Assembly: GCF_005490985.1 (NCBI RefSeq)
Contig: NZ_CP027869.1
Coordinates: 434,001 to 498,000 of the forward strand
Length of the DNA: 64,000 nucleotides
From: Curtobacterium sp. SGAir0471
GTDB taxonomy: Bacteria; Actinomycetota; Actinomycetes; Actinomycetales; Microbacteriaceae
Direction of reading: 5' to 3'
Shown: in pieces, positions 6,742 to 21,289 of the stretch
How the letters are laid out: every line of letters begins with the position of its first letter
Position numbering within the stretch: position 1 is the first letter of the stretch
Program-made: the position numbers and the translations under genes
Notes under the pieces: model-generated
The model's input: the letters and a program-made list of their open reading frames with translations, nothing else
Database searches by the model: none
What the model was told of the DNA's origin: nothing

Positions 6742-8241
6742 GTGTCGATCGCAGTCCGTCGTCCTGCAACGAGTTCGCAGTCCGGTGCCGGGCCGGCGGC
6801 CGATCGTGGCCAGCTGCACCGCGCGGTCGGTGGCTGGTTCGGCGACTACTCGCGAGCCGTCGCCGTCGTCGACCTGCTGCTGTTGGTCGTGACGTTCTGG
6901 ATCGCCCACGGCATCCGCTTCCCCGGCGAACGACTCCTCGTGCCGTCCGCGCCCGGCTGGCTCGAGACCGCCACCGGCCCCGCGGTCGTCCTGCTCTGGG
7001 CCGCCCTGCTCGCGGGGTTCCGCACTCGGGAACCCCGGATCGTGGGTGTCGGCGGCGAGGAGTACCGCCGTGTCCTGCTCGCGAGCCTGACCACGTGCGC
7101 GGTCGTCGCCGTCGTCGCCTACGCCGTCCAGCTCGACCTCGCGCGAGGCTACGTCGCGATCGCCTTCCCGCTCGGCACGTTCCTGCTCGCGGTGGGGCGC
7201 CGGAACGCTCGCACCGTCCTCGCGCGGCGTCGGGCCCGCGGCGAGCTGCTGCAGGACGTCCTCGTCGTCGGTGACCCGGCGGACGTCCGCTACGTCGGAC
7301 GTCGCGTCGCGGCCACACCGGCCGCGGGCTACCGAGTGGCTGCCGTCGCCGTCGACGCACCGGACGCTGAGTCCTCGCTGGTCCTCGGTCCGGACGAGGT
7401 CCCCGTCGCCGGTCGCGTCGACGACGTGCTCGACGTCGCCACCGCGCTGGACGTCAGCGCGGTGATCGTCGCCGGTGCGATCCCCGGCGGGCACGAGCGG
7501 CTGCGGCGTCTCGGGTGGCAGCTCGAGGAACGGGGCATCGAACTCGTCGTCTCCTCGCCGTTGGCGGACATCGCCGCGGACCGGGTGCACGAACGCCCCG
7601 TCGACGGACTGCCGCTGATGCACGTGGAGACCCCGGACTACCGCTGCCGCCCGGGCAAGCGGGCGCTCGACGTGCTCGGTGCGGTGATCGGTCTCACGGT
7701 GCTCGCACCGGTGTTCGTGGCCGTCGCGCTCGCGATCCGCCTCGATGACGGCGGTCCGGTCCTGTTCCGACAGGAGCGCATCGGTCGGGGTGGTCAGCCG
7801 TTCCGCATCTGCAAGTTCCGGACCATGTGCACCGACGCCGAAGACCGCGTCGCGGAGCTCGCCGCGCTCGACGAGGGTTCCGGCCCACTGTTCAAGGTGC
7901 GACAGGACCCTCGGGTCACCCGGGTCGGCGCGTTCCTCCGGCGGACCTCGCTCGACGAACTCCCGCAGCTGTGGAACGTGCTCACCGGCACGATGAGCCT
8001 GGTCGGCCCCCGTCCCGCGTTGCCCTGCGAGGTCGCGGTCTACGAGGACTTCGCCGATCGTCGACTCCTCGTCACCCCGGGCATGACCGGGCTCTGGCAG
8101 GTCAGCGGGCGGTCCGACCTCGACTGGGCCGAGGGAGTCCGACTCGACCTGCACTACGTCGAGAACTGGTCCTTCCTGCACGACATCGTGATCCTGGCGC
8201 GGACGGTCCCGTCCGTCCTGCGCTCGCGCGGCGCCTACTGA
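6742..8241 (+). CDS. Polyprenyl-phosphate sugar-1-phosphate transferase (exopolysaccharide priming glycosyltransferase)
   Basis: 499 residues from the GTG at 6742, preceded by GAGGGG; a TTG at 6673 in the same frame would add 23 unlikely residues. It is expected to transfer a hexose-1-phosphate from a UDP-sugar to undecaprenyl phosphate, the first step of exopolysaccharide or capsule repeat assembly. Four N-terminal membrane helices and a Rossmann-like CoA-binding fold precede a fifth helix and the bacterial sugar transferase domain (from about KRALDVLGAVIGL), with the diagnostic KFRTM, LDELPQLWNV and SLVGPRP motifs. No other polysaccharide gene is nearby, so the rest of the pathway must be elsewhere. 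Sugar specificity cannot be read from the sequence. Confidence 0.92.
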   Translation: MSIAVRRPATSSQSGAGPAADRGQLHRAVGGWFGDYSRAVAVVDLLLLVVTFWIAHGIRFPGERLLVPSAPGWLETATGPAVVLLWAALLAGFRTREPRIVGVGGEEYRRVLLASLTTCAVVAVVAYAVQLDLARGYVAIAFPLGTFLLAVGRRNARTVLARRRARGELLQDVLVVGDPADVRYVGRRVAATPAAGYRVAAVAVDAPDAESSLVLGPDEVPVAGRVDDVLDVATALDVSAVIVAGAIPGGHERLRRLGWQLEERGIELVVSSPLADIAADRVHERPVDGLPLMHVETPDYRCRPGKRALDVLGAVIGLTVLAPVFVAVALAIRLDDGGPVLFRQERIGRGGQPFRICKFRTMCTDAEDRVAELAALDEGSGPLFKVRQDPRVTRVGAFLRRTSLDELPQLWNVLTGTMSLVGPRPALPCEVAVYEDFADRRLLVTPGMTGLWQVSGRSDLDWAEGVRLDLHYVENWSFLHDIVILARTVPSVLRSRGAY

Positions 8242-10215: not shown

Positions 10216-10385
10216 GTCCCGATCCTGGCGACCAGGTGTTTCGTCAGCGTGTGCGTCTCCCCGATCGCGGCCGTGCAGGGTCCGGGCGCATGCTGAGCTC
10301 TTCCTGGTGTGACCGGTGCGGGACGGGCGGCGGCCGTGAGCCCTGGCCGTGCGCGGGTCGGCGGCCGAGCGGGCACGATGAGGTC

Positions 10386-14128: not shown

Positions 14129-14185
14129 GACGGCCTGGAGGCCCGGTGCCGGTCCACGAGACCGGCACCGGGCCTCCAGGCCGTC
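14129..14185 (+). terminator. Long palindromic terminator of clpB
   Basis: Perfect 26-bp arms (14129-14154, 14160-14185) with a 5-nt loop. Its GGAGGCCCGGTGCCGGT core is shared with the hairpin at 21351-21395 and is part of a repeat family seen throughout the window. Confidence 0.85.
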
Positions 14186-14250
14186 GCGTGCCGTCCGTGG
14201 TCGCCGACCCGGTTACGCCGCGGAAACAGGCGGACCGACAGGCTCGCCAC

Positions 14251-14373
14251 ATGGACACACTCTCGATCGACACCGTTCCCCTCTTCGTCGTCCCCGGCCC
14301 GGAGAGCCGCGCCTTCGTCGTCCACCTGGACGAGCGACGCGGCACCGTGCACGTCGACCCAGCCGATGCATAG
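14251..14373 (+). CDS. Small ORF, 40 residues, unknown function
   Basis: Encodes a 40-residue acidic peptide beginning MDTLSIDTVPLFVV with no signal peptide. No homolog recognised. Support for it being real is contextual: GAAAC at 14223-14227 stands exactly 28 nt before the ATG, the same distance as before the three lipoprotein genes downstream, and the start context CACATG matches that of the first lipoprotein. There is no good Shine-Dalgarno site. It ends 22 bp before the response regulator start, so it may be a leader peptide or small member of the same operon. Confidence 0.45.
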   Translation: MDTLSIDTVPLFVVPGPESRAFVVHLDERRGTVHVDPADA

Positions 14374-14395
14374 AAATGTCATGTGTCATGTACTC

Positions 14396-15049
14396 ATGCG
14401 CGTACTGGTGGTGGATGACGAGACAGCCCTGGCCGACCTGATCGCCCGTGGCCTCACGCGTCAGGACATGGCCGTCGACGTGGCGTACCGCGGTGACCAC
14501 GCCGACGAGTTGCTCGCCGTGAACGACTACGACGTCGTCGTGCTCGACCGTGACCTCCCCGGCATGCACGGGGACGAGGTCGCCCGACGGCAGACCGCCC
14601 GGTCCGGCTGCACGCGGATCCTCATGCTGACCGCCGCGACGGCGCTCACGGACCGCGTCCACGGGCTCGAGCTCGGCGCCGACGACTACCTGCCGAAGCC
14701 GTTCGAGTTCCCCGAGCTCGTCGCCCGGGTCCGCGCGCTCGGTCGACGCAGCACCGCCGCCGTCGCGCCGGTGCTCGAGCGGGACGGCCTGCTCCTCGAC
14801 TCGAACCGCCGCATCGCCACACGCGACGGTCGGCCGCTCGACCTCACCACGAAGGAGCTCGGGGTGCTCGAGGTCCTGCTCCGCGCGGACGGACGGATCG
14901 TCTCCGCCGAAGAGCTCCTCGAGAAGGTCTGGGACATGAACATCGACCCGTTCACCGCCGCCGTCCGGGTGACGATGTCGAAGCTCCGCAAGAAGCTCGG
15001 TGCCCCGGACCCGATCCGGACCGTCCCGGGCAAGGGCTACGCGCTGTGA
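14396..15049 (+). CDS. OmpR-family response regulator
   Basis: 217 residues: receiver domain (MRVLVVDDET, phosphoacceptor Asp51 in VVVLDRDLPG, conserved Lys in LPKPFEFPE) and a winged-helix DNA-binding domain ending RTVPGKGYAL. It is expected to be phosphorylated by the kinase encoded next and to bind DNA as a dimer. I start at 14396 because it gives the canonical MRVLVVDDE opening; the ORF could extend ten residues to 14366, which are unlike the family. The short AT-richer stretch directly upstream contains TGTCATG twice in tandem (from 14377), a possible autoregulatory site. The likely targets are the lipoprotein and exporter genes downstream. Confidence 0.93.
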   Translation: MRVLVVDDETALADLIARGLTRQDMAVDVAYRGDHADELLAVNDYDVVVLDRDLPGMHGDEVARRQTARSGCTRILMLTAATALTDRVHGLELGADDYLPKPFEFPELVARVRALGRRSTAAVAPVLERDGLLLDSNRRIATRDGRPLDLTTKELGVLEVLLRADGRIVSAEELLEKVWDMNIDPFTAAVRVTMSKLRKKLGAPDPIRTVPGKGYAL

Positions 15050-16230
15050 CCCGACTCTGGTCCATCCGGGCGCGGACGACCCTGACGTTCGCGGTCGCCT
15101 CGATGGTCCTGACCGCGGCCGTCGTGCTCCTGGTGACGTGGGCCTCGACGGTGACGCTCACCGGGACGATCGACGGCGGCGCGGCCGAACGGACGCCCTC
15201 GTTGCGGAGCACCACCGAGGGCGACGACGGCGAGTGGTGGTCTGGCTCCGAGCTCCGACCGGGGCACGGCTCCGAGACCCCGGCAGGGGGTGCTCGGGAC
15301 GTCCGTGGTGCCGAGGCGGTGATGGTGGTCGCGGAGGCGAACCGCACCCAGTGGCAGTGGGCCGCCGTCGGGGTGCTCGCCGCCGGACTGCTGGCGGGCG
15401 GGACCGGATGGGTCGTCAGCCGCCGGGTCCTCCGACCGATCGATCGGATCACCGACACCGCACGCCGGCTGTCCGCGTCGACCCTGCACGAGCGCATCGG
15501 ACTCGACGGCCCCGACGACGAGCTCCGACGGCTCGCAGGGACGATCGACGACCTGCTCGACCGCCTCGAGGCGGCGTTCGAGAGCCAGCGGCGCTTCGTC
15601 GCACAGGCATCGCACGAGCTGCGGACCCCGCTGGCCGTGCAGCGCGCCGCCCTGCAGGTCGGCCTGGCTGAGGGCTCTGGTCCGGACGACGTCGTCGCGG
15701 TCCGCGAGGAACTGCTCGAGCAGAACCGGCGGACCGAGCACCTGGTCGAGAGCCTGCTGGCGCTCGCCGAGGCGGATCGCGGGCTCGACGGCCGCGTCGA
15801 CGACCTCGACCTCGCCGAGCTCGCGGGACAGGTGGTCGCCGGGCAGCGGGACCACGCCCGGACCGCGGGGGTGGCCCTGACGGTCGAACCGGCCCCGTCC
15901 GCCGTGGTGTCGGCCGAGCCGGTGCTCGTCCGGCAGCTGGTGACGAACCTCGTCGACAACGCCGTCGAGTACAACGAGCCCGGCGGGTTCGTCCGCGTGT
16001 CGGTCTGCCCGGACGGCCTCTGCGTCGAGAACTCGGGGCCGGTGGTGTCGGCGGACGAGGTCGCCGTGCTCGTGGAGCCGTTCCGCCGCGGGGCGCAGGG
16101 CGCTGCGACCGGGCGCCACAGCGGTCTCGGGCTGTCCATCGTCGCGGCGATCGTCCGCGCCCACGGGTGGTCCCTGGCCGTCGAGCCCCGACCGGACGGC
16201 GGCCTCCGGGTGCGGGTCGCGACGGGCTGA
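15046..16230 (+). CDS. Membrane sensor histidine kinase
   Basis: 394 residues, GTG start overlapping the regulator stop by four bases (GTGA), so translation is coupled. Two helices (about 12-34 and 104-126) enclose a short extracellular loop of about 70 residues, rich in Gly, Glu and Ser, with no recognised sensor fold. Then come HAMP, a HisKA domain with phosphoacceptor His190 in QASHELRTPLA and an HATPase_c domain with N-box NLVDNAVEYN and GLGLSIV. The small sensor loop suggests it reads the membrane or a partner protein, possibly the lipoproteins encoded next; that is inference. Confidence 0.93.
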   Translation: MTRLWSIRARTTLTFAVASMVLTAAVVLLVTWASTVTLTGTIDGGAAERTPSLRSTTEGDDGEWWSGSELRPGHGSETPAGGARDVRGAEAVMVVAEANRTQWQWAAVGVLAAGLLAGGTGWVVSRRVLRPIDRITDTARRLSASTLHERIGLDGPDDELRRLAGTIDDLLDRLEAAFESQRRFVAQASHELRTPLAVQRAALQVGLAEGSGPDDVVAVREELLEQNRRTEHLVESLLALAEADRGLDGRVDDLDLAELAGQVVAGQRDHARTAGVALTVEPAPSAVVSAEPVLVRQLVTNLVDNAVEYNEPGGFVRVSVCPDGLCVENSGPVVSADEVAVLVEPFRRGAQGAATGRHSGLGLSIVAAIVRAHGWSLAVEPRPDGGLRVRVATG

Positions 16231-16275
16231 GCCGGGATCGGCGGTGGTCCTGGCGAGGTCTTCGCAGCCGGCTAC

Positions 16276-16322
16276 CGGTGTTTCGTCGATGTCACTCCGC
16301 CGCACGTCGTGCCGAAACACCG
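16276..16322 (+). promoter_or_regulatory. Inverted GTTTC/GAAAC element before lipoprotein 1
   Basis: CGGTGTTTCG (16276-16285) and CGAAACACCG (16313-16322) are perfect 10-bp inverted arms. GTTTC and GAAAC start 34 bp apart, and GAAAC starts 28 nt before the ATG, spacings repeated exactly at the next two genes. Probably the binding site of the adjacent response regulator or part of a shared promoter. Confidence 0.6.
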
Positions 16323-16341
16323 CTCCGGGTGCACTGGTCAC

Positions 16342-16854
16342 ATGACCACCACGACGAAGCAGACCATCGGACGGCTCTCGGCCGTCCTCGCCACCGTGCT
16401 CCTGGCAGGGTGCGCGCTCACCGCGTGTTCCTCGGGGCCCGACGCTCCCGACGCAGCGGGCGGAACGACCTCGGCCGAGGGCAGCCAGCGCGAGAAGCTC
16501 CTGGCGAACGCGAAGTGCCTGCGCGACAAGGGGTTCGACGTCTCGGACGAGCAGTTCACCTCCGGGAACTTCTCGATCCCGGAGGGCGCCGATCCCGACG
16601 AGTACCTGAAGGCCGACGAGGAGTGCAGCGCGAAGAACCGGAGTGCGGGTGATGCACAGGGCCCGGCGACGCCGTTCGGGTTCGGCCCCGCGGTGGCGGC
16701 CTGCCTGCGCGACTCGGGCTTCGCCGACTACCCCGACGACCCGGGGGCGCAGGGCGAGTACGTGCCGCACGACGGCGACGGCTTCGATGCGGCGCTCGAC
16801 AAGTGCGTCACAGAGCACGGCGACGGTGCCGGAGTGCAGGCTCCCCGCGGCTGA
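16342..16854 (+). CDS. Lipoprotein 1 of a three-paralog set
   Basis: 170 residues, ATG at 16342. The signal peptide ends in a lipobox (LTAC; LAGC five residues earlier is an alternative), predicting a lipid-anchored protein on the outer face of the membrane. The mature part contains two similar units, each with C-L-R-D-x-G-F, an Asp/Pro patch and a second cysteine about 35-40 residues later (KCLRDKGFDV and ACLRDSGFADYP), so four cysteines that could form two disulfides. No characterised family recognised. It follows the kinase after 111 bp and precedes two paralogs and an efflux set, suggesting a ligand-binding or sensing role in that system. Confidence 0.8.
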   Translation: MTTTTKQTIGRLSAVLATVLLAGCALTACSSGPDAPDAAGGTTSAEGSQREKLLANAKCLRDKGFDVSDEQFTSGNFSIPEGADPDEYLKADEECSAKNRSAGDAQGPATPFGFGPAVAACLRDSGFADYPDDPGAQGEYVPHDGDGFDAALDKCVTEHGDGAGVQAPRG

Positions 16855-16862
16855 CCGGTGCG

Positions 16863-16921
16863 TGCAGCGGCGGAACCACTGTGTTTCGCCGCTGCAACCT
16901 CGGCCGACCGCCTGCTGAAAC
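16863..16921 (+). promoter_or_regulatory. Hairpin and GTTTC/GAAAC element before lipoprotein 2
   Basis: TGCAGCGGCG (16863-16872) and CGCCGCTGCA (16887-16896) are perfect inverted arms just after the lipoprotein 1 stop, a possible terminator or attenuator. The second arm overlaps the GTTTCGCCGCTGCAACC element (GTTTC 16883-16887); GAAAC is at 16917-16921, 34 bp on and 28 nt before the ATG. Confidence 0.55.
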
Positions 16922-16944
16922 GTCGCTCCTCGTTCCATGGGTCC

Positions 16945-17451
16945 ATGACCGAAACGACCTTCCGCCCGCGCGCCGTCCTGACCGCCGTCGCACTGCTCGC
17001 CGCACTCCCGCTCGCCCTGTCCGCCTGCTCCTCCGCCGACCCCGGTGCGGACTCCACCTCCGCCGCCCAGGGAGTCGGTGCGAAGTGGGGCGACTGCATG
17101 CGCTCCGCAGGGTTCGACGTCCCCGACCCCGCTGACGAGGAACTCGCGTCGGGGGTCGTCCGCACGCCGCCGGGCGCCGACGAGCAGGCGTTCGGCGAAG
17201 CCGCCCGCACGTGTCAGCAGGACCTCGGGCTCAAGAGCGCCGACGACGCGCAGCGACAGACCTGGGAGCGCCAGTACAGCCAGGTCGCGTCGTGCATCCG
17301 TGAGCACGGCTACGCCGACTTCCCCGAGCAGGAGCCCGGGGTGCTCAGTACCGGCGAGTACGCCCGCGCCTCAGAGCCGGCGTTCGAGAAGACCTTCCAG
17401 GACTGCCTCGCCGAGTTCGCTCCGGACACGAAGCAGCAGAACCCGGGCTGA
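16945..17451 (+). CDS. Lipoprotein 2 of a three-paralog set
   Basis: 168 residues, ATG at 16945. Signal peptide with lipobox LSAC, then a short linker and two CxRxxG(F/Y) units: DCMRSAGFDVPDP with a partner cysteine in RTCQQDLG, and SCIREHGYADFPEQ with a partner cysteine in QDCLAEF. It is closest to lipoprotein 3, sharing the WGDCMR, GFDV, QVASCIRE and DFPEQ blocks, while lipoprotein 1 is more divergent. No enzymatic motif is visible. No Shine-Dalgarno site precedes the start. Confidence 0.8.
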   Translation: MTETTFRPRAVLTAVALLAALPLALSACSSADPGADSTSAAQGVGAKWGDCMRSAGFDVPDPADEELASGVVRTPPGADEQAFGEAARTCQQDLGLKSADDAQRQTWERQYSQVASCIREHGYADFPEQEPGVLSTGEYARASEPAFEKTFQDCLAEFAPDTKQQNPG

Positions 17452-17504
17452 GCGCTCCCCGCCCGACACGGCGCCAATCTGCACGCCGACCACGACCCTT
17501 GACC

Positions 17505-17537
17505 ACGACGCCCCTGCCGACCCGGCGGGGGCGTCGT
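17505..17537 (+). terminator. Hairpin terminator after lipoprotein 2
   Basis: Arms ACGACGCCCC (17505-17514) and GGGGCGTCGT (17528-17537) with a GC-rich loop, 53 bp past the stop and immediately before the next GTTTC element, so each lipoprotein gene appears to be its own transcription unit. Confidence 0.6.
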
Positions 17538-17540
17538 CGT

Positions 17541-17579
17541 GTTTCGCCGGTGCAACCCGTCCTGACCACCTGGGGAAAC
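17541..17579 (+). promoter_or_regulatory. GTTTC/GAAAC element before lipoprotein 3
   Basis: GTTTCGCCGGTGCAACC (17541-17557) matches the element before lipoprotein 2 at 16 of 17 bases; GAAAC is at 17575-17579. The 34-bp and 28-nt spacings are the same as at the other two genes. Confidence 0.6.
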
Positions 17580-17602
17580 AGCCCGTCTCATTCCATGGAC
17601 CC

Positions 17603-18103
17603 ATGACCCACACGCCCGTCCGCAGCCGCGTCACGCTCGGCACCGTCGCCCTGTTCATCGCCCTCCCGCTCACCCTCTCCGCCTGCAGTACGCCCGACGC
17701 GGGGACCGCCCCCACCACGGCGGCGAAGGGCATCGGGACACAGTGGGGCGACTGCATGCGCGCGGCCGGCTTCGACGTCGAGGATCCGGACGACGACGCC
17801 GTGACCTCCGGGGTTGCGACCGCTCCGCAGGGCGTCGACCAGCACGCGTTCGCCGAGCAGGCGGGCACGTGCTCCCGTTCGCTCGGGGTCACCGGTGCCG
17901 ACGACGCGACCGAGCAGAAGTTCCGGCGCGAGTACCAGCAGGTCGCGTCGTGCATCCGCGAGCGCGGCTACCCGGACTTCCCCGAGCAGGACGGCGGCTT
18001 CACGACCGAGGGGTACCCCCGGTCGGAGGAGCCGGAGTTCGACGGGGTCGTGACCGACTGCATGGCGGAGTACTCGCCGGACAGCCGGACCGCCGGGCGC
18101 TGA
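17603..18103 (+). CDS. Lipoprotein 3 of a three-paralog set
   Basis: 166 residues, ATG at 17603. Signal peptide with lipobox LSAC, then the duplicated two-cysteine modules (DCMRAAGFDVEDP with GTCSRSLG; SCIRERGYPDFPEQ with TDCMAEYSPD). It is the last of the three lipoproteins, 101 bp before the adaptor gene of the efflux set, so it could be carried into that operon transcript. The intervening sequence holds near-repeats of CGGGCGCTGACC but no strong hairpin. Confidence 0.8.
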   Translation: MTHTPVRSRVTLGTVALFIALPLTLSACSTPDAGTAPTTAAKGIGTQWGDCMRAAGFDVEDPDDDAVTSGVATAPQGVDQHAFAEQAGTCSRSLGVTGADDATEQKFRREYQQVASCIRERGYPDFPEQDGGFTTEGYPRSEEPEFDGVVTDCMAEYSPDSRTAGR

Positions 18104-18204
18104 CCCGCCGGGCGCTGACCCACCGGGCATGCACCCGCCCGGCACTGCCGCGCGGCACCACCCCACCTCACCCCACCTCACACACCGACCCCAGGAAGGT
18201 CCTG

Positions 18205-19338
18205 ATGACCCCCACCTCCCACTCCCGACCCGGCCGCAGCCGTCGGCGCGTCGTCGTCGCCTCCGTCTGCCTGGTCGCCGTCCTCGGCGCCGGTGGCGCG
18301 TCCTGGGCGCTGCTCAGCGGCCAGCCGACCGCAGCCTCCGCCGCCGACGAGGACACCGCCACGGAGCACCGCTCCACGTCGCCGGTCACCCGCGGCGACC
18401 TGACCGAGTCGAACGTCTTCGCGGGCACGCTCGGCTACGGCGCCCCGGTCGGCGTACCGGCCGCGGCATCGGGCACCATCACGTGGCTCCCGGACCCGGG
18501 CCAGGTCATCCACCGCGACGAGCCGCTCTACGCGGTCGACGAGGAGCCCGTCCGGGCGATGTACGGCACCGTCCCGCTGTGGCGCACGCTCGAGTACGGC
18601 GACCGCGGTCAGGACGTCGCGCAGCTCAACCGGAACCTCGCGGCGCTCGGGTACGGCGTCGTCGAGGACGACCGGTTCGGCAAGCGCACGCTCGCGGGGG
18701 TCCGGCAGTGGCAGAAGGACCGCCACCGCACGGTCACCGGCACGATCGGCGCCGACGACATCGCCTTCGTCGACGGCGACGTCCGCGTGGCGAAGGTCGA
18801 CGGGACGCTCGGCCAGACCGTCGGGAGTGGCGGCGGTGGTGACGCCGGTGGAGATGCCGGCGGCGGATCGGCCGGGGGCTCCGGCGGCAACGTCATCAGC
18901 GTCACGAGCACCAGCCGCGTGGTCGACACCACCGTCGGGCAGCAGGACGCGGACCGGCTCACGGTCGGGGCCGAGGTCTCGGTCCGGATCAACGGCGGCG
19001 GCGATGCCCTGCCCGGCAAGGTCGTCGCGACCGAGCCCGTGGAGGACGACAACGGCGGCGCACCGAAGGTCCGGGCGACCGTGTCGATCGAGGCGGGGGA
19101 CCGGCAGCTGCCAGCGGCCGCGACGGCGCAGGTGATCGTCGCCGGTCGCAGCGAGCAGGACGTGCTGTCGGTGCCGGTCGCGGCGCTCGTGGCGCACGGA
19201 TCGGACGGCTACGCGGTCGACGTGGTGCGACACGGCGACACGAAGCGTGTCCCGGTCGAGGCCGGCTTCGTGGCGAACGGTCGGGTCGCCGTCACCGGGG
19301 ACGTCCGCGAGGGCGACCAGGTGGTGGTGCCCTCGTGA
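18205..19338 (+). CDS. Efflux periplasmic-adaptor-like protein with peptidoglycan-binding domain
   Basis: 377 residues, ATG at 18205 after AGGAAGG. One N-terminal membrane anchor, a short barrel-sandwich-like segment (GTLGYGAPVGV...GTITWLPDPGQVI), a peptidoglycan-binding type 1 domain (about 130-185; RGQDVAQLNRNLAALGY) and then a Gly-rich linker and C-terminal beta-barrel regions like HlyD/MacA adaptors. This arrangement is typical of actinobacterial adaptors that work with MacB-like ABC permeases, with the wall-binding domain replacing a contact to an outer-membrane channel. Overlaps the ATPase start by four bases. Confidence 0.85.
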   Translation: MTPTSHSRPGRSRRRVVVASVCLVAVLGAGGASWALLSGQPTAASAADEDTATEHRSTSPVTRGDLTESNVFAGTLGYGAPVGVPAAASGTITWLPDPGQVIHRDEPLYAVDEEPVRAMYGTVPLWRTLEYGDRGQDVAQLNRNLAALGYGVVEDDRFGKRTLAGVRQWQKDRHRTVTGTIGADDIAFVDGDVRVAKVDGTLGQTVGSGGGGDAGGDAGGGSAGGSGGNVISVTSTSRVVDTTVGQQDADRLTVGAEVSVRINGGGDALPGKVVATEPVEDDNGGAPKVRATVSIEAGDRQLPAAATAQVIVAGRSEQDVLSVPVAALVAHGSDGYAVDVVRHGDTKRVPVEAGFVANGRVAVTGDVREGDQVVVPS

Positions 19339-20105
19339 CCGCCCCCGTCCTCGTGCTCGACGACCTCGTCAAGACCTACGGCGAGGTCGGGGCGCTCCGC
19401 GGGGTGTCGTTGTCCGTCGACGCGGGTGAACTCGTGGCCGTGGTCGGGCCGTCCGGCTCCGGCAAGTCGACGATGCTCAACATCATCGGGACGCTCGACC
19501 GGCCGACCTCCGGCAGCCTGACGATCGCCGGCAACGACGTGCAGACGATGGCGGACGACGCGCTGTCCGAGCTCCGCGCCGACCACATCGGCTTCGTGTT
19601 CCAGCACTTCCACCTGCAGGCAGGGGCGACCGCGACCGAGAACGTCGCCGACGGCCTGCTCTACGCGGGCGTCGGCCGGCACGAGCGCCGACGACGCGCG
19701 GTGGTCGCCCTCGAACGCGTCGGGCTCGGGCACCGGGTCGACCACCGGCCGAACCAGCTGTCCGGCGGTGAGAAGCAGCGGGTCGCCATCGCGCGGGCGA
19801 TCGTCGGCGACCCGACGATCCTGCTCGCCGACGAGCCGACCGGTGCGCTCGACACGGCCTCCGGCGCGGCGATCCTCGACCTGCTCCGGGAACTGAACGT
19901 CGGCGGGACGACGGTGCTCGTCATCACCCACGACCTCGAGCTCGCAGCGGCCCTGCCCCGCCAGGTCCGGATGCGCGACGGACTGGTGCAGCAGGACTCC
20001 CGCGGCGACGGGGTCGACGCCCGCGAGCTCGCACGGACGATCCGCACGGCGGGTACGGGGCTCGTCGGCGCCTTCGGGTCGACCGGGCAGGAGGGAGCCC
20101 GGTGA
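19335..20105 (+). CDS. ABC transporter ATP-binding protein, MacB/LolD type
   Basis: 256 residues, GTG start inside GTGA overlap with the adaptor stop. Walker A GPSGSGKST, Q-loop FVFQHF, signature LSGGEKQRVAIARA, Walker B ILLADEPTGALD and the switch His in VITHD are all intact. It energises the permease encoded next. Residues after about 225 form a short variable tail. Confidence 0.95.
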   Translation: MTAPVLVLDDLVKTYGEVGALRGVSLSVDAGELVAVVGPSGSGKSTMLNIIGTLDRPTSGSLTIAGNDVQTMADDALSELRADHIGFVFQHFHLQAGATATENVADGLLYAGVGRHERRRRAVVALERVGLGHRVDHRPNQLSGGEKQRVAIARAIVGDPTILLADEPTGALDTASGAAILDLLRELNVGGTTVLVITHDLELAAALPRQVRMRDGLVQQDSRGDGVDARELARTIRTAGTGLVGAFGSTGQEGAR

Positions 20106-21289
20106 GCCGCCGGAACGCCGTCCGCCCCGGCGACCTGCTCCGACTCGGGCTCTTCGGCCTGCGCACCCGCCCCACCCGCGTGGTGCTCTCCGCGCTCGGC
20201 ATCGCGATCGGCATCGCGGCGATGATCGCAGTGGTCGGGATCTCCTCGTCGAGCAAGGCGAAGCTCGACCAGGTCCTCGACGCCCTCGGCACGAACGTGC
20301 TCACGGCGACCAAGGCGCAGGGCTTCGGCGAGACGCCACCGTTGCCGGAGACCGCGGTCGCGTCCGCCGAGCGGCAGGACGACGTGCTCACGGCCGCCGG
20401 CGTCGGCACCGTCCCGCGCCGGGCGCCCTACCGGAACGCGCTCGTGTCCCCGCTCGAGACCAAGGGCATCGGCACGATGACCGCGTGGGGCGACGTCCCC
20501 GCGGTGCTCGGTGGGACGGTGGTGTCCGGTCGGTGGCTGGACACCCGCGCCGACGCCGTCCCCCAGGTCGTCCTCGGCAGCCAGGCGGCCGCGTCGCTCG
20601 GCATCGACCGGGTCGCGGCGGACACCCGCGTCTGGATGAACGGATCGTGGGTGCAGGTCGTCGGGATCCTCGGGCCGATGGCACTCGCGCCCGACCTGGA
20701 CAACCAGGTCTTCGTGCCGGGTGGGCTCGCGGCCGAGCTCGGCTTCGACGGCCACCCGACGGCGGTCTACACGCGGGTCGACCCAGAGCGTGTCGGTCAG
20801 GCCCGCGACGTCCTGGCCCGGGCCATCCGTCCGGACAGCCCCGCTGACGTCGGGGTGACGAACCCGTCCGACGCGCTCGCCGCGAAGAACGCCACGGACG
20901 ACTCGTTCACCGGGCTCCTCGTCGGCATCGGCGGCGTGGCACTGCTGGTCGGCGGCATCGGCGTCGCGAACACCATGGTGATCACCGTCCTCGAACGACG
21001 GGCCGAGGTGGGTGTCCGCCGTGCGCTCGGTGCCCGGCGCCGCAACATCCGCGACCAGTTCCTGGTGGAGTCGCTGCTGCTGTCGTTCCTCGGCGGTGTC
21101 GCCGGGGTGGTGATCGGCGTGGGGGTGACCGCCGCCTTCGCGGCCGCGAACGGCGCTCCGCTCGCGGTGCCGCTCTGGGCTGTCGCCGGCGGCCTCGGCG
21201 CGACCGTCGTGATCGGTGGGGTCTCCGGGATCTACCCGGCGGCACGCGCGGCACGCATCCCACCGACCTCCGCACTCGCCGCCGTCTGA
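20102..21289 (+). CDS. ABC transporter permease, MacB/FtsX type
   Basis: 395 residues, GTG start overlapping the ATPase stop. One N-terminal helix (about 25-45), a large extracellular MacB periplasmic core-like domain and three C-terminal helices with the FtsX-family region VLERRAEVGVRRALGARRRNI. In MacB-type systems this permease acts as a mechanotransmitter pulling substrates from the outer leaflet or periplasm rather than a classical channel. Substrate unknown. Last gene of the operon, followed by hairpins at 21309-21329 and 21351-21395. Confidence 0.93.
   Translation: MSRRNAVRPGDLLRLGLFGLRTRPTRVVLSALGIAIGIAAMIAVVGISSSSKAKLDQVLDALGTNVLTATKAQGFGETPPLPETAVASAERQDDVLTAAGVGTVPRRAPYRNALVSPLETKGIGTMTAWGDVPAVLGGTVVSGRWLDTRADAVPQVVLGSQAAASLGIDRVAADTRVWMNGSWVQVVGILGPMALAPDLDNQVFVPGGLAAELGFDGHPTAVYTRVDPERVGQARDVLARAIRPDSPADVGVTNPSDALAAKNATDDSFTGLLVGIGGVALLVGGIGVANTMVITVLERRAEVGVRRALGARRRNIRDQFLVESLLLSFLGGVAGVVIGVGVTAAFAAANGAPLAVPLWAVAGGLGATVVIGGVSGIYPAARAARIPPTSALAAV

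What the first reader, a model, noticed from the sequence alone, without database searches (positions are those of the whole stretch)
14251..21289. Candidate undescribed sensory-efflux system: two-component pair, three paralogous lipoproteins, MacAB-like exporter
The block holds a small ORF, OmpR-type regulator and kinase, three paralogous lipoproteins, a peptidoglycan-binding adaptor, an ABC ATPase and an FtsX/MacB permease, all on one strand. The kinase has only a small sensor loop, so the lipoproteins may supply sensing or substrate capture. I know of MacAB-type exporters with kinases, but not this triplicated lipoprotein family.
Basis: partly seen in the sequence, partly recalled or inferred. 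Interest (0 to 1): 0.7.

Follow-up and report, generated by a model that had tools for sequence, protein, structure and literature searches.

The report
Actinobacterial exporter with paired-cysteine lipoproteins
This stretch encodes a membrane export pump, the two proteins that probably switch it on and three copies of an unnamed surface lipoprotein; relatives of that lipoprotein sit beside the same kind of pump across the actinobacteria, so it is probably an overlooked part of the pump whose exact job is unknown.

Summary
14251-21289 carries a 40-aa ORF, an OmpR-type regulator, a HAMP kinase, three paralogous lipoproteins, a peptidoglycan-binding adaptor, an ABC ATPase and a MacB/FtsX permease. 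The lipoproteins have no Pfam or NCBIfam family and no PDB sequence relative; each is two homologous modules with a conserved cysteine pair. A DNA motif (11-bp direct repeat, about GTTWC-N6-GTAAG) learned from other genera has its four best sites in the 64 kb window before the small ORF/regulator and before each lipoprotein; a strict pattern occurs four times in the 3.53 Mb genome, all here. With another regulator subfamily the motif is not found (0 of 19), yet lipoprotein and exporter stay together. So the lipoprotein looks like an exporter component more than a kinase accessory. Best reading: a MacAB/YknXYZ-like exporter with an obligate lipoprotein subunit that captures substrate at the outer leaflet, switched on by its own two-component system. 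Triplication is local (one to four copies). Substrate and lipoprotein role are inferred.

The parts
14210..14231 (-). Operator: 11-bp direct repeat, before the small ORF and regulator
   Evidence: 16.6 bits, best of all positions of the window with a motif learned from other genera
14251..14373 (+). Small ORF, 40 aa (core VPL..FVV..DE..GTV..DP), function unknown
   Evidence: Frame kept in the window and 9 of 22 other Curtobacterium loci; coding-type GC by codon position
14396..15049 (+). OmpR-family response regulator
   Evidence: PF00072, PF00486; best NCBIfam VanR-O, far under its cut-off
15046..16230 (+). Sensor histidine kinase with short variable extracytoplasmic loop
   Evidence: HAMP, HisKA, HATPase_c; loop not conserved
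16276..16297 (+). Operator before LP1, 66 nt before the ATG
   Evidence: 16.5 bits, second best in the window
16342..16854 (+). LP1, lipoprotein of the beta group
   Evidence: Invariant Cys in alignment of 114 members; tree
16879..16900 (+). Operator before LP2, 66 nt before the ATG
   Evidence: 9.8 bits, fourth best in the window (next best elsewhere 9.6)
16945..17451 (+). LP2, lipoprotein of the alpha group
   Evidence: AlphaFold model
17505..17537 (+). Terminator-like hairpin between LP2 and LP3, its tail running into the LP3 operator
   Evidence: 15-bp stem, z -4.6, none of 200 shuffles folds as well; the consensus scan flags it, but 2 hits against 0.7 in shuffles is not more than chance
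17537..17558 (+). Operator before LP3, 66 nt before the ATG
   Evidence: 10.9 bits, third best in the window
17603..18103 (+). LP3, lipoprotein of the alpha group
18205..19338 (+). Periplasmic-adaptor-like protein: TM helix, barrel-type domains, peptidoglycan-binding domain where other adaptors have the alpha-hairpin
   Evidence: PG_binding_1 at 134-183, RND_mfp match at 227-375; AlphaFold pLDDT 87 and Foldseek to BesA, ZneB, MexA, MacA
19335..20105 (+). ABC ATPase of the MacB/LolD group
   Evidence: PF00005; best NCBIfam matches MacB (238 bits) and LolD (223), both under cut-off
20102..21289 (+). MacB-type permease (MacB_PCD + FtsX), not fused to the ATPase
   Evidence: PDB sequence matches MacB 5gko E 1.8e-33 and S. 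pneumoniae 5xu1 E 1.1e-21

Best explanation
A conserved actinobacterial export unit of the MacAB/YknXYZ kind with an obligate lipoprotein subunit. Shown by sequence: lipoprotein, adaptor, ATPase and permease form a nearly fixed unit, usually with an OmpR-type two-component system, one subfamily of which goes with an 11-bp direct-repeat motif before the lipoprotein gene. Inferred: the lipoprotein, held in the outer leaflet and stiffened by two disulfides, captures a membrane-active or envelope-targeting compound and hands it to the MacB-type permease and to the adaptor, which is tethered to the wall by a peptidoglycan-binding domain instead of reaching for a TolC; ATP-driven movement of the permease expels the compound through the zone between membrane and wall. 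Kinase activation by the same stress lets the regulator bind the motif and raise lipoprotein and exporter. Extra lipoprotein copies would widen or boost capture.
For: Two-way linkage: adaptor present in 117 of 120 fetched lipoprotein loci (family 19 of 20; class 60 of 60, with ATPase and permease in 59, the other cut by its contig end; genus 18 of 20; other classes 20 of 20), and lipoprotein beside 96 of 97 adaptors of this clade. In the 60 class loci the regulator is of the window's subfamily in 51, another subfamily in 6, not found in 3, so the lipoprotein goes with the exporter. Lipoprotein and adaptor on one strand in 60 of 60, median gap about 60 nt. Motif: log-likelihood 374 against 79-86 in three shuffled sets; four best sites in the window; four exact pattern matches in 3.53 Mb, all here, reversed control none; 9 bits or more before the first lipoprotein in 21 of 24 Curtobacterium loci, none of them used for training; other untrained loci: 12 of 16 with this regulator subfamily, 0 of 19 with the other, 3% of 1000 background windows. 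Permease and ATPase MacB-like; adaptor fold like known periplasmic adaptors with the peptidoglycan-binding domain at the hairpin place. Partial distance correlation of the lipoprotein over 65 loci is highest with the permease (0.35), then kinase (0.23), adaptor (0.11) (weak evidence).
Against: No substrate, phenotype or physical contact is shown; capture and hand-over are inference. Two lipoproteins stand without exporter in reach (L035, L133). Only 5 of 15 second or third lipoprotein copies in Curtobacterium have a 9-bit site upstream, and only 9 of 22 regulators, so a site before each copy is a trait of this locus. Of the untrained loci with the window's regulator subfamily 4 of 16 lack the site. 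The lipoprotein also tracks the kinase somewhat (0.23), so a sensing role is not excluded. The lipoprotein model matched no solved fold. The disulfides are inferred from invariant Cys.
Confidence: 0.5

Rival explanations
1. The lipoprotein is the extracytoplasmic sensor: it binds the stressor (or reports exporter load) and controls the kinase, whose own loop is too short and variable to bind a ligand.
For: Kinase loop short and unconserved, 30-117 aa; a regulator and kinase accompany 57 of 60 class loci; in the window each lipoprotein copy has its own motif site, as a feedback sensor might; partial correlation with kinase 0.23.
Against: The lipoprotein stays with the exporter where the regulator is of another subfamily (6 of 60) or not found (3 of 60), and in 4 of 20 other-class loci no regulator was found (two of these show a kinase match, one near a contig edge). 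I found no locus with lipoprotein and two-component genes but clearly without exporter (L114 ends at a contig edge).
Confidence: 0.25
2. The lipoprotein is the cargo: the MacB/LolD-like transporter pulls it out of the membrane (LolCDE-like) and the wall-bound adaptor passes it to the wall or outside.
For: ATPase scores nearly as well to LolD (223 bits) as to MacB (238); lipoprotein and exporter linked both ways; copy number varies 1-4 per exporter.
Against: Permease matches the LolC/E model less well than MacB (40 against 81 bits); an adaptor is present, which LolCDE lacks (recalled); the lipoprotein changes fast (median identity 29%) beyond the CMR..G.D..DP core.
Confidence: 0.12
3. The lipoprotein is a redox or soft-metal device: the CMR..G module binds metal or reports oxidation, and the unit is a metal or thiol-stress exporter.
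For: Four invariant Cys, often with Met beside them; regulator and kinase each have the heavy-metal subfamily as second-best NCBIfam match (173 and 146 bits, cut-offs 279 and 293); among fold matches of the adaptor the metal adaptor ZneB ranks fourth (1.7e-12) and CusB in the same range, so the fold does not speak for drugs over metals.
Against: 100 of 114 members have exactly five Cys, one lipobox plus two pairs about 37 apart, as expected for plain disulfides; by sequence the adaptor is nearer to the MacA/MexA chimera (9.6e-7) than to SilB (0.0017); the permease is MacB-like, not RND.
Confidence: 0.1
4. Ordinary neighbours only: an efflux operon with hypothetical lipoproteins that happen to lie beside it.
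For: Each single component apart from the lipoprotein is of a common kind.
Against: Linkage in both directions across the phylum and the shared motif before the lipoprotein genes.
Confidence: 0.03

Closest known systems
YknWXYZ of Bacillus subtilis (MacAB-like exporter of Gram-positives)
   Same: Adaptor, separate ATPase and MacB-like permease, with a further co-transcribed protein (YknW); purified YknX binds peptidoglycan (PMC5985334, section 13 read).
   Different: YknW is called a membrane protein there; I did not compare it with the lipoproteins. YknX is said to have the MacA fold, here a PG_binding_1 domain stands at the hairpin place.
Spr0693-0695 (SpMacAB) of Streptococcus pneumoniae and AS-48EFGH of Enterococcus faecalis
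   Same: MacB-type exporters with adaptor in Gram-positives; the permease 5xu1 is a sequence match.
   Different: No lipoprotein is mentioned in the section read; SpMacA has an alpha-hairpin.
MacAB-TolC with YbjP of E. coli
   Same: A lipoprotein bound to a MacAB pump (PMC13082787, passages read; 9qgy among the fold matches of the adaptor).
   Different: YbjP binds the outer-membrane duct TolC; it did not come up among fold or sequence matches of the lipoprotein, and I made no direct comparison.
BceRS-BceAB and related detoxification modules
   Same: Two-component system next to an ABC transporter of the MacB superfamily; kinase with little extracytoplasmic sequence (recalled, and passages).
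   Different: No adaptor or lipoprotein there (recalled); here the kinase has HAMP and the permease one MacB_PCD + FtsX unit of 395 aa.
VanRS-type regulators
   Same: VanR-O and VanS-O are the best NCBIfam matches of regulator and kinase.
   Different: 239 of 505 and 146 of 720 bits; no van gene among the neighbours scanned.

Membership tests
MacB-superfamily exporter (MacAB/YknXYZ kind) | Permease with MacB_PCD and one FtsX domain | tested here: met
   PF12704 and PF02687 above cut-off; PDB MacB matches
MacB-superfamily exporter (MacAB/YknXYZ kind) | ATPase of the MacB/LolD group in the same operon | tested here: met
   ABC_tran; best NCBIfam MacB then LolD, both below the equivalog cut-offs
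MacB-superfamily exporter (MacAB/YknXYZ kind) | Membrane-anchored adaptor with barrel and lipoyl-type domains | tested here: met
   Predicted model; Foldseek to BesA 9e-13, MexA 2e-12, MacA 2e-11, query TM-scores 0.3-0.5
MacA proper | Alpha-helical hairpin in the adaptor | tested here: not met
   Two short helices of a PG_binding_1 domain stand at that place in the model and in the profile matches
MacAB proper | Export of macrolides or peptides | not testable with these tools
   Needs experiment
BceAB/BceS module | Kinase with almost no loop and no HAMP; no adaptor (features recalled) | tested here: not met
   HAMP found; loop about 65 aa; adaptor present
LolCDE | LolC/LolE-type permeases, no adaptor | tested here: not met
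   LolC/E model 40 of 362 bits; adaptor present
VanRS | VanR and VanS models at their cut-offs | tested here: not met
   239 of 505 and 146 of 720 bits
Any Pfam or NCBIfam family for the lipoprotein | Match at the curated cut-off | tested here: not met
   Three window proteins in both libraries; 114 members in Pfam only, at most 3 share a weak match
YbjP-like pump lipoproteins | Shared fold | tested here: inconclusive
   No PDB fold match for the lipoprotein model; absence of a match is not evidence

The most novel reading that the evidence does not exclude
The paired-module lipoproteins are an undescribed class of exporter subunit, spread through the actinobacterial phylum, that both loads the MacB-type exporter and reports its load to the kinase: a lipoprotein-based flux sensor in bacteria without TolC, with tandem copies acting as interchangeable specificity subunits.
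Probability: 0.25. Interest if true: 0.8.

Novelty: new variant of a known kind. Interest (0 to 1): 0.62.

Why it matters
It gives a phylum-wide family of unnamed lipoproteins a definite place: the near-constant partner of one clade of MacB-type exporters, with a predicted operator that makes the regulon testable at once. The adaptor with a peptidoglycan-binding domain at the hairpin place bears on the question, put in the 2018 MacB review (PMC5985334, section 13), of what such adaptors do in bacteria without an outer membrane. If the lipoprotein loads or senses substrate, it would be a new principle for envelope defence in actinobacteria, a phylum that holds many antibiotic producers.

Tried and rejected

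Sigma-70-type promoter scan: none found, uninformative in DNA of this GC content. A one-mismatch search for the motif pattern gave 8 further sites in the genome, its reversed control none; I did not look at their genes, so a wider regulon is not excluded. The site at 10234 (9.6 bits) was left as probable chance, though LP2's own site is only 9.8.

Literature: nine text searches aimed at the unit gave no description; a tenth was for YbjP. Papers seen: PMC5985334 passages and section 13; PMC3123327, PMC11237479 and PMC13082787 passages; all others as search listing only. Subscription papers are mostly not held, so an earlier description cannot be excluded.

Weak points: the genome search scores only the best few candidates per genome (9 for the lipoprotein and 7 for the adaptor in the class and phylum searches), so genome counts are lower bounds. 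The 60 class loci are the best hit of each of the 60 best-scoring genomes, not a random draw; other listed hits include adjacent pairs that were not fetched (G608:C38, G499:C60, G302:C2). The adaptor profile was built from lipoprotein-linked loci, so 96 of 97 describes this clade only; in 13 weaker adaptor loci also fetched (L141-L153), lipoprotein-like matches were weak (16-37 bits) in 11 and absent in 2 (L148, L150). The regulator subfamilies are told apart by score to my regulator profile (over 240 bits, or 100-240); L163, counted with the other subfamily, is cut by its contig end and may be misfiled. In the motif run the shuffled sets had 20 random starts against 40 for the real set, and a few of the 59 training sites are weak. 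Rows dropped before alignment: A3 holds 21 of 25 lipoproteins then at hand, A4 114 of 119, A5 65 of 98 adaptors.
Full report
WHAT IS THERE. The window lies in a 3.53 Mb single-contig genome. Genes in order on the + strand: a 40-aa ORF (14251-14373), response regulator (14396-15049), histidine kinase (15046-16230), LP1 (16342-16854), LP2 (16945-17451), LP3 (17603-18103), adaptor (18205-19338), ATPase (19335-20105) and permease (20102-21289).

THE LIPOPROTEIN FAMILY. No Pfam or NCBIfam family takes the three proteins; 114 members scanned against Pfam give no common match, and the PDB holds no convincing sequence relative. Searching 5.8 billion proteins gave 13 matches for LP2 (itself included) and 45 for an eight-sequence profile (candidates capped at 7997), one of them from Streptomyces sp. 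NBC_00859. In an alignment of 114 members five Cys are invariant, the lipobox Cys plus C51, C90, C117 and C154 of LP2; R53, G56, R119 and G122 are nearly so. 100 of 114 members have exactly five Cys, with medians of 38 and 37 residues within the pairs. The two halves are homologous: profile comparison 99.1% probability, E 4.6e-19, against at most 2.4% with shuffled columns in three trials. Consensus module: F-A-x-C-M-R-[ED]-x-G-x-D-x-x-D-P ... A-x-x-C. Two intramodule disulfides are the natural reading, not shown.

SPREAD. By genome, at the thresholds used: 55 of 66 in the genus, 28 of 249 in the family with LP2 alone, 117 of 394 in the class with the first profile, and 37 of 396 in the phylum with the wide profile, 26 of them in other classes. 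These are lower bounds, since few candidates per genome are scored.

LINKAGE, LIPOPROTEIN AS BAIT. Family: 20 regions; 19 carry adaptor, ATPase and permease, 18 also regulator and kinase; L035 has the lipoprotein near its contig start and no exporter downstream; L043 has no two-component genes in reach. Class: the best hit of each of 60 genomes; adaptor in 60 of 60, ATPase and permease in 59 (L087 is cut by its contig end), regulator of the window's subfamily in 51, of another subfamily in 6, none found in 3 (L093, L101, L110); in L093 and L101 the lipoprotein follows the permease instead of preceding the adaptor. Genus: 20 further regions; 18 complete, L114 cut by the contig end after two lipoproteins, L133 an orphan lipoprotein. 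Other classes: 20 regions; exporter in 20, a regulator in 16. In all 117 of 120. Exporter as bait: 97 adaptors at E 1e-70 or better, own genome left out, in a search of 296 genomes; 89 have a listed lipoprotein within 4 kb; of the other eight, seven had one on inspection (L134-L140, 40-145 bits) and one lies at a contig start. So the association holds in both directions.

COPY NUMBER. Each of the 60 class loci shows one lipoprotein. Among the 19 non-orphan further genus loci: six single, ten double (one second copy partial), two triple and one cut. L163 and L173 have two and L170 has four. In the tree LP2 and LP3 fall in an alpha group of 22 (100/99) and LP1 in a less firm beta group of 19 (94/93); the alpha pair of the window (96/67) and that of L115/L116 (97/88) appear to have arisen separately. 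So triplication is a local elaboration.

MOTIF. In 59 divergent regulator/lipoprotein intergenic regions, none from Curtobacterium, motif search finds an 11-bp direct repeat, about G[TA]T[TA]C-N6-GTAAG, with log-likelihood 374 against 79-86 in three shuffled sets; a site is placed in all 59, a few weakly. Scanned blind over the window, its four best sites are 14210(-) before the small ORF and regulator (16.6 bits), 16276 before LP1 (16.5), 17537 before LP3 (10.9) and 16879 before LP2 (9.8); the fifth, elsewhere, has 9.6. All three lipoprotein sites start 66 nt before the ATG. No site precedes the adaptor (best 2.1 bits). In 24 other Curtobacterium loci the first lipoprotein has a 9-bit site on its own strand in 21, in 14 of 24 starting 66-67 nt before the profile match; but only 5 of 15 second or third copies and 9 of 22 regulators have one. 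A strict pattern covering the four window sites occurs four times in the genome, all here, and its reversed control not at all; with one mismatch eight more places appear, which I did not examine. Further test on loci outside the training set: 12 of 16 with the window's regulator subfamily reach 9 bits, 0 of 19 with the other OmpR-type subfamily (best 9.0, just under), 1 of 8 with none, and 3% of 1000 background windows (Pfam of four alternative regulators). This ties the regulator to the lipoprotein-exporter operon by sequence alone. Direct repeats of this period are what OmpR/PhoB-type regulators bind (recalled).

LAYOUT. A 15-bp hairpin (z -4.6) stands between LP2 and LP3 and its tail runs into the LP3 site; a weaker one (z -2.9, 3 of 200 shuffles as good) overlaps the LP2 site. 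Inference: LP1, LP2 and LP3-exporter can be separate transcripts here, so lipoprotein can be made in excess over exporter.

EXPORTER. The permease is one MacB_PCD-FtsX unit with MacB as best solved relative. In the adaptor model (pLDDT 87) the PG_binding_1 helices (136-147, 160-172) sit between strands 107-120 and 186-198, where adaptors have the alpha-hairpin; Foldseek finds BesA, ZneB, MexA, CusB, MacA and others at query TM-scores of 0.3-0.5. So the adaptor looks built to meet the wall rather than an outer-membrane duct.

HOW IT PROBABLY WORKS. See Best explanation. The point that separates exporter subunit from kinase accessory is that the lipoprotein keeps company with the exporter when the two-component pair changes or is not found, while I found no locus with the pair and lipoprotein but clearly no exporter. 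The kinase loop is short and unconserved, so some other part may bring the signal; the lipoprotein-loaded exporter is one candidate. The distance correlations over 65 loci (permease 0.35, kinase 0.23, adaptor 0.11) agree but are weak.

KNOWN OR NEW. It works like Gram-positive MacAB systems (YknWXYZ, SpMacAB; PMC5985334 section 13). It differs by the lipoprotein family, the peptidoglycan-binding domain in the adaptor and the dedicated motif. The nearest idea in print that I saw is YbjP, a lipoprotein partner of TolC in MacAB and AcrABZ pumps (PMC13082787, passages); no link to the present family came up. Nine text searches gave no description of this unit. I rate it a new variant of a known kind.

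Noticed in passing
14129-14185: 26-bp perfect inverted repeat with a 5-nt loop (fold -73.8 kcal/mol, z -10) between the upstream Clp-like ATPase ORF (named by eye from its sequence) and the small ORF, probably a terminator.
   Followed up: partly
14251-14373: 40-aa protein directly after a motif site and before the regulator, kept in 9 of 22 other Curtobacterium loci; DE..GTV..DP core, no family. Could be a small modulator of the kinase.
   Followed up: partly
L133:6061-6564 and L035:566-1114: Two lipoproteins without exporter in reach; L133 has a strong motif match (17.1 bits) on the other strand upstream.
   Followed up: no
L170:5682-8988: Four tandem lipoproteins before one exporter in a genome of another class.
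   Followed up: no
L148, L150: More distant adaptor/MacB-type exporter loci with no lipoprotein match.
   Followed up: no
G297, G392, G431 (family f11, genus g102): Short matches to the first part of the profile (about positions 4-112) in one genus of the class: possible half-length relatives; one has a stop inside.
   Followed up: no
G000:C1:1585345-1585361 and 2685295-2685311: Two of eight one-mismatch matches of the motif pattern elsewhere in the genome; neighbours not examined.
   Followed up: no
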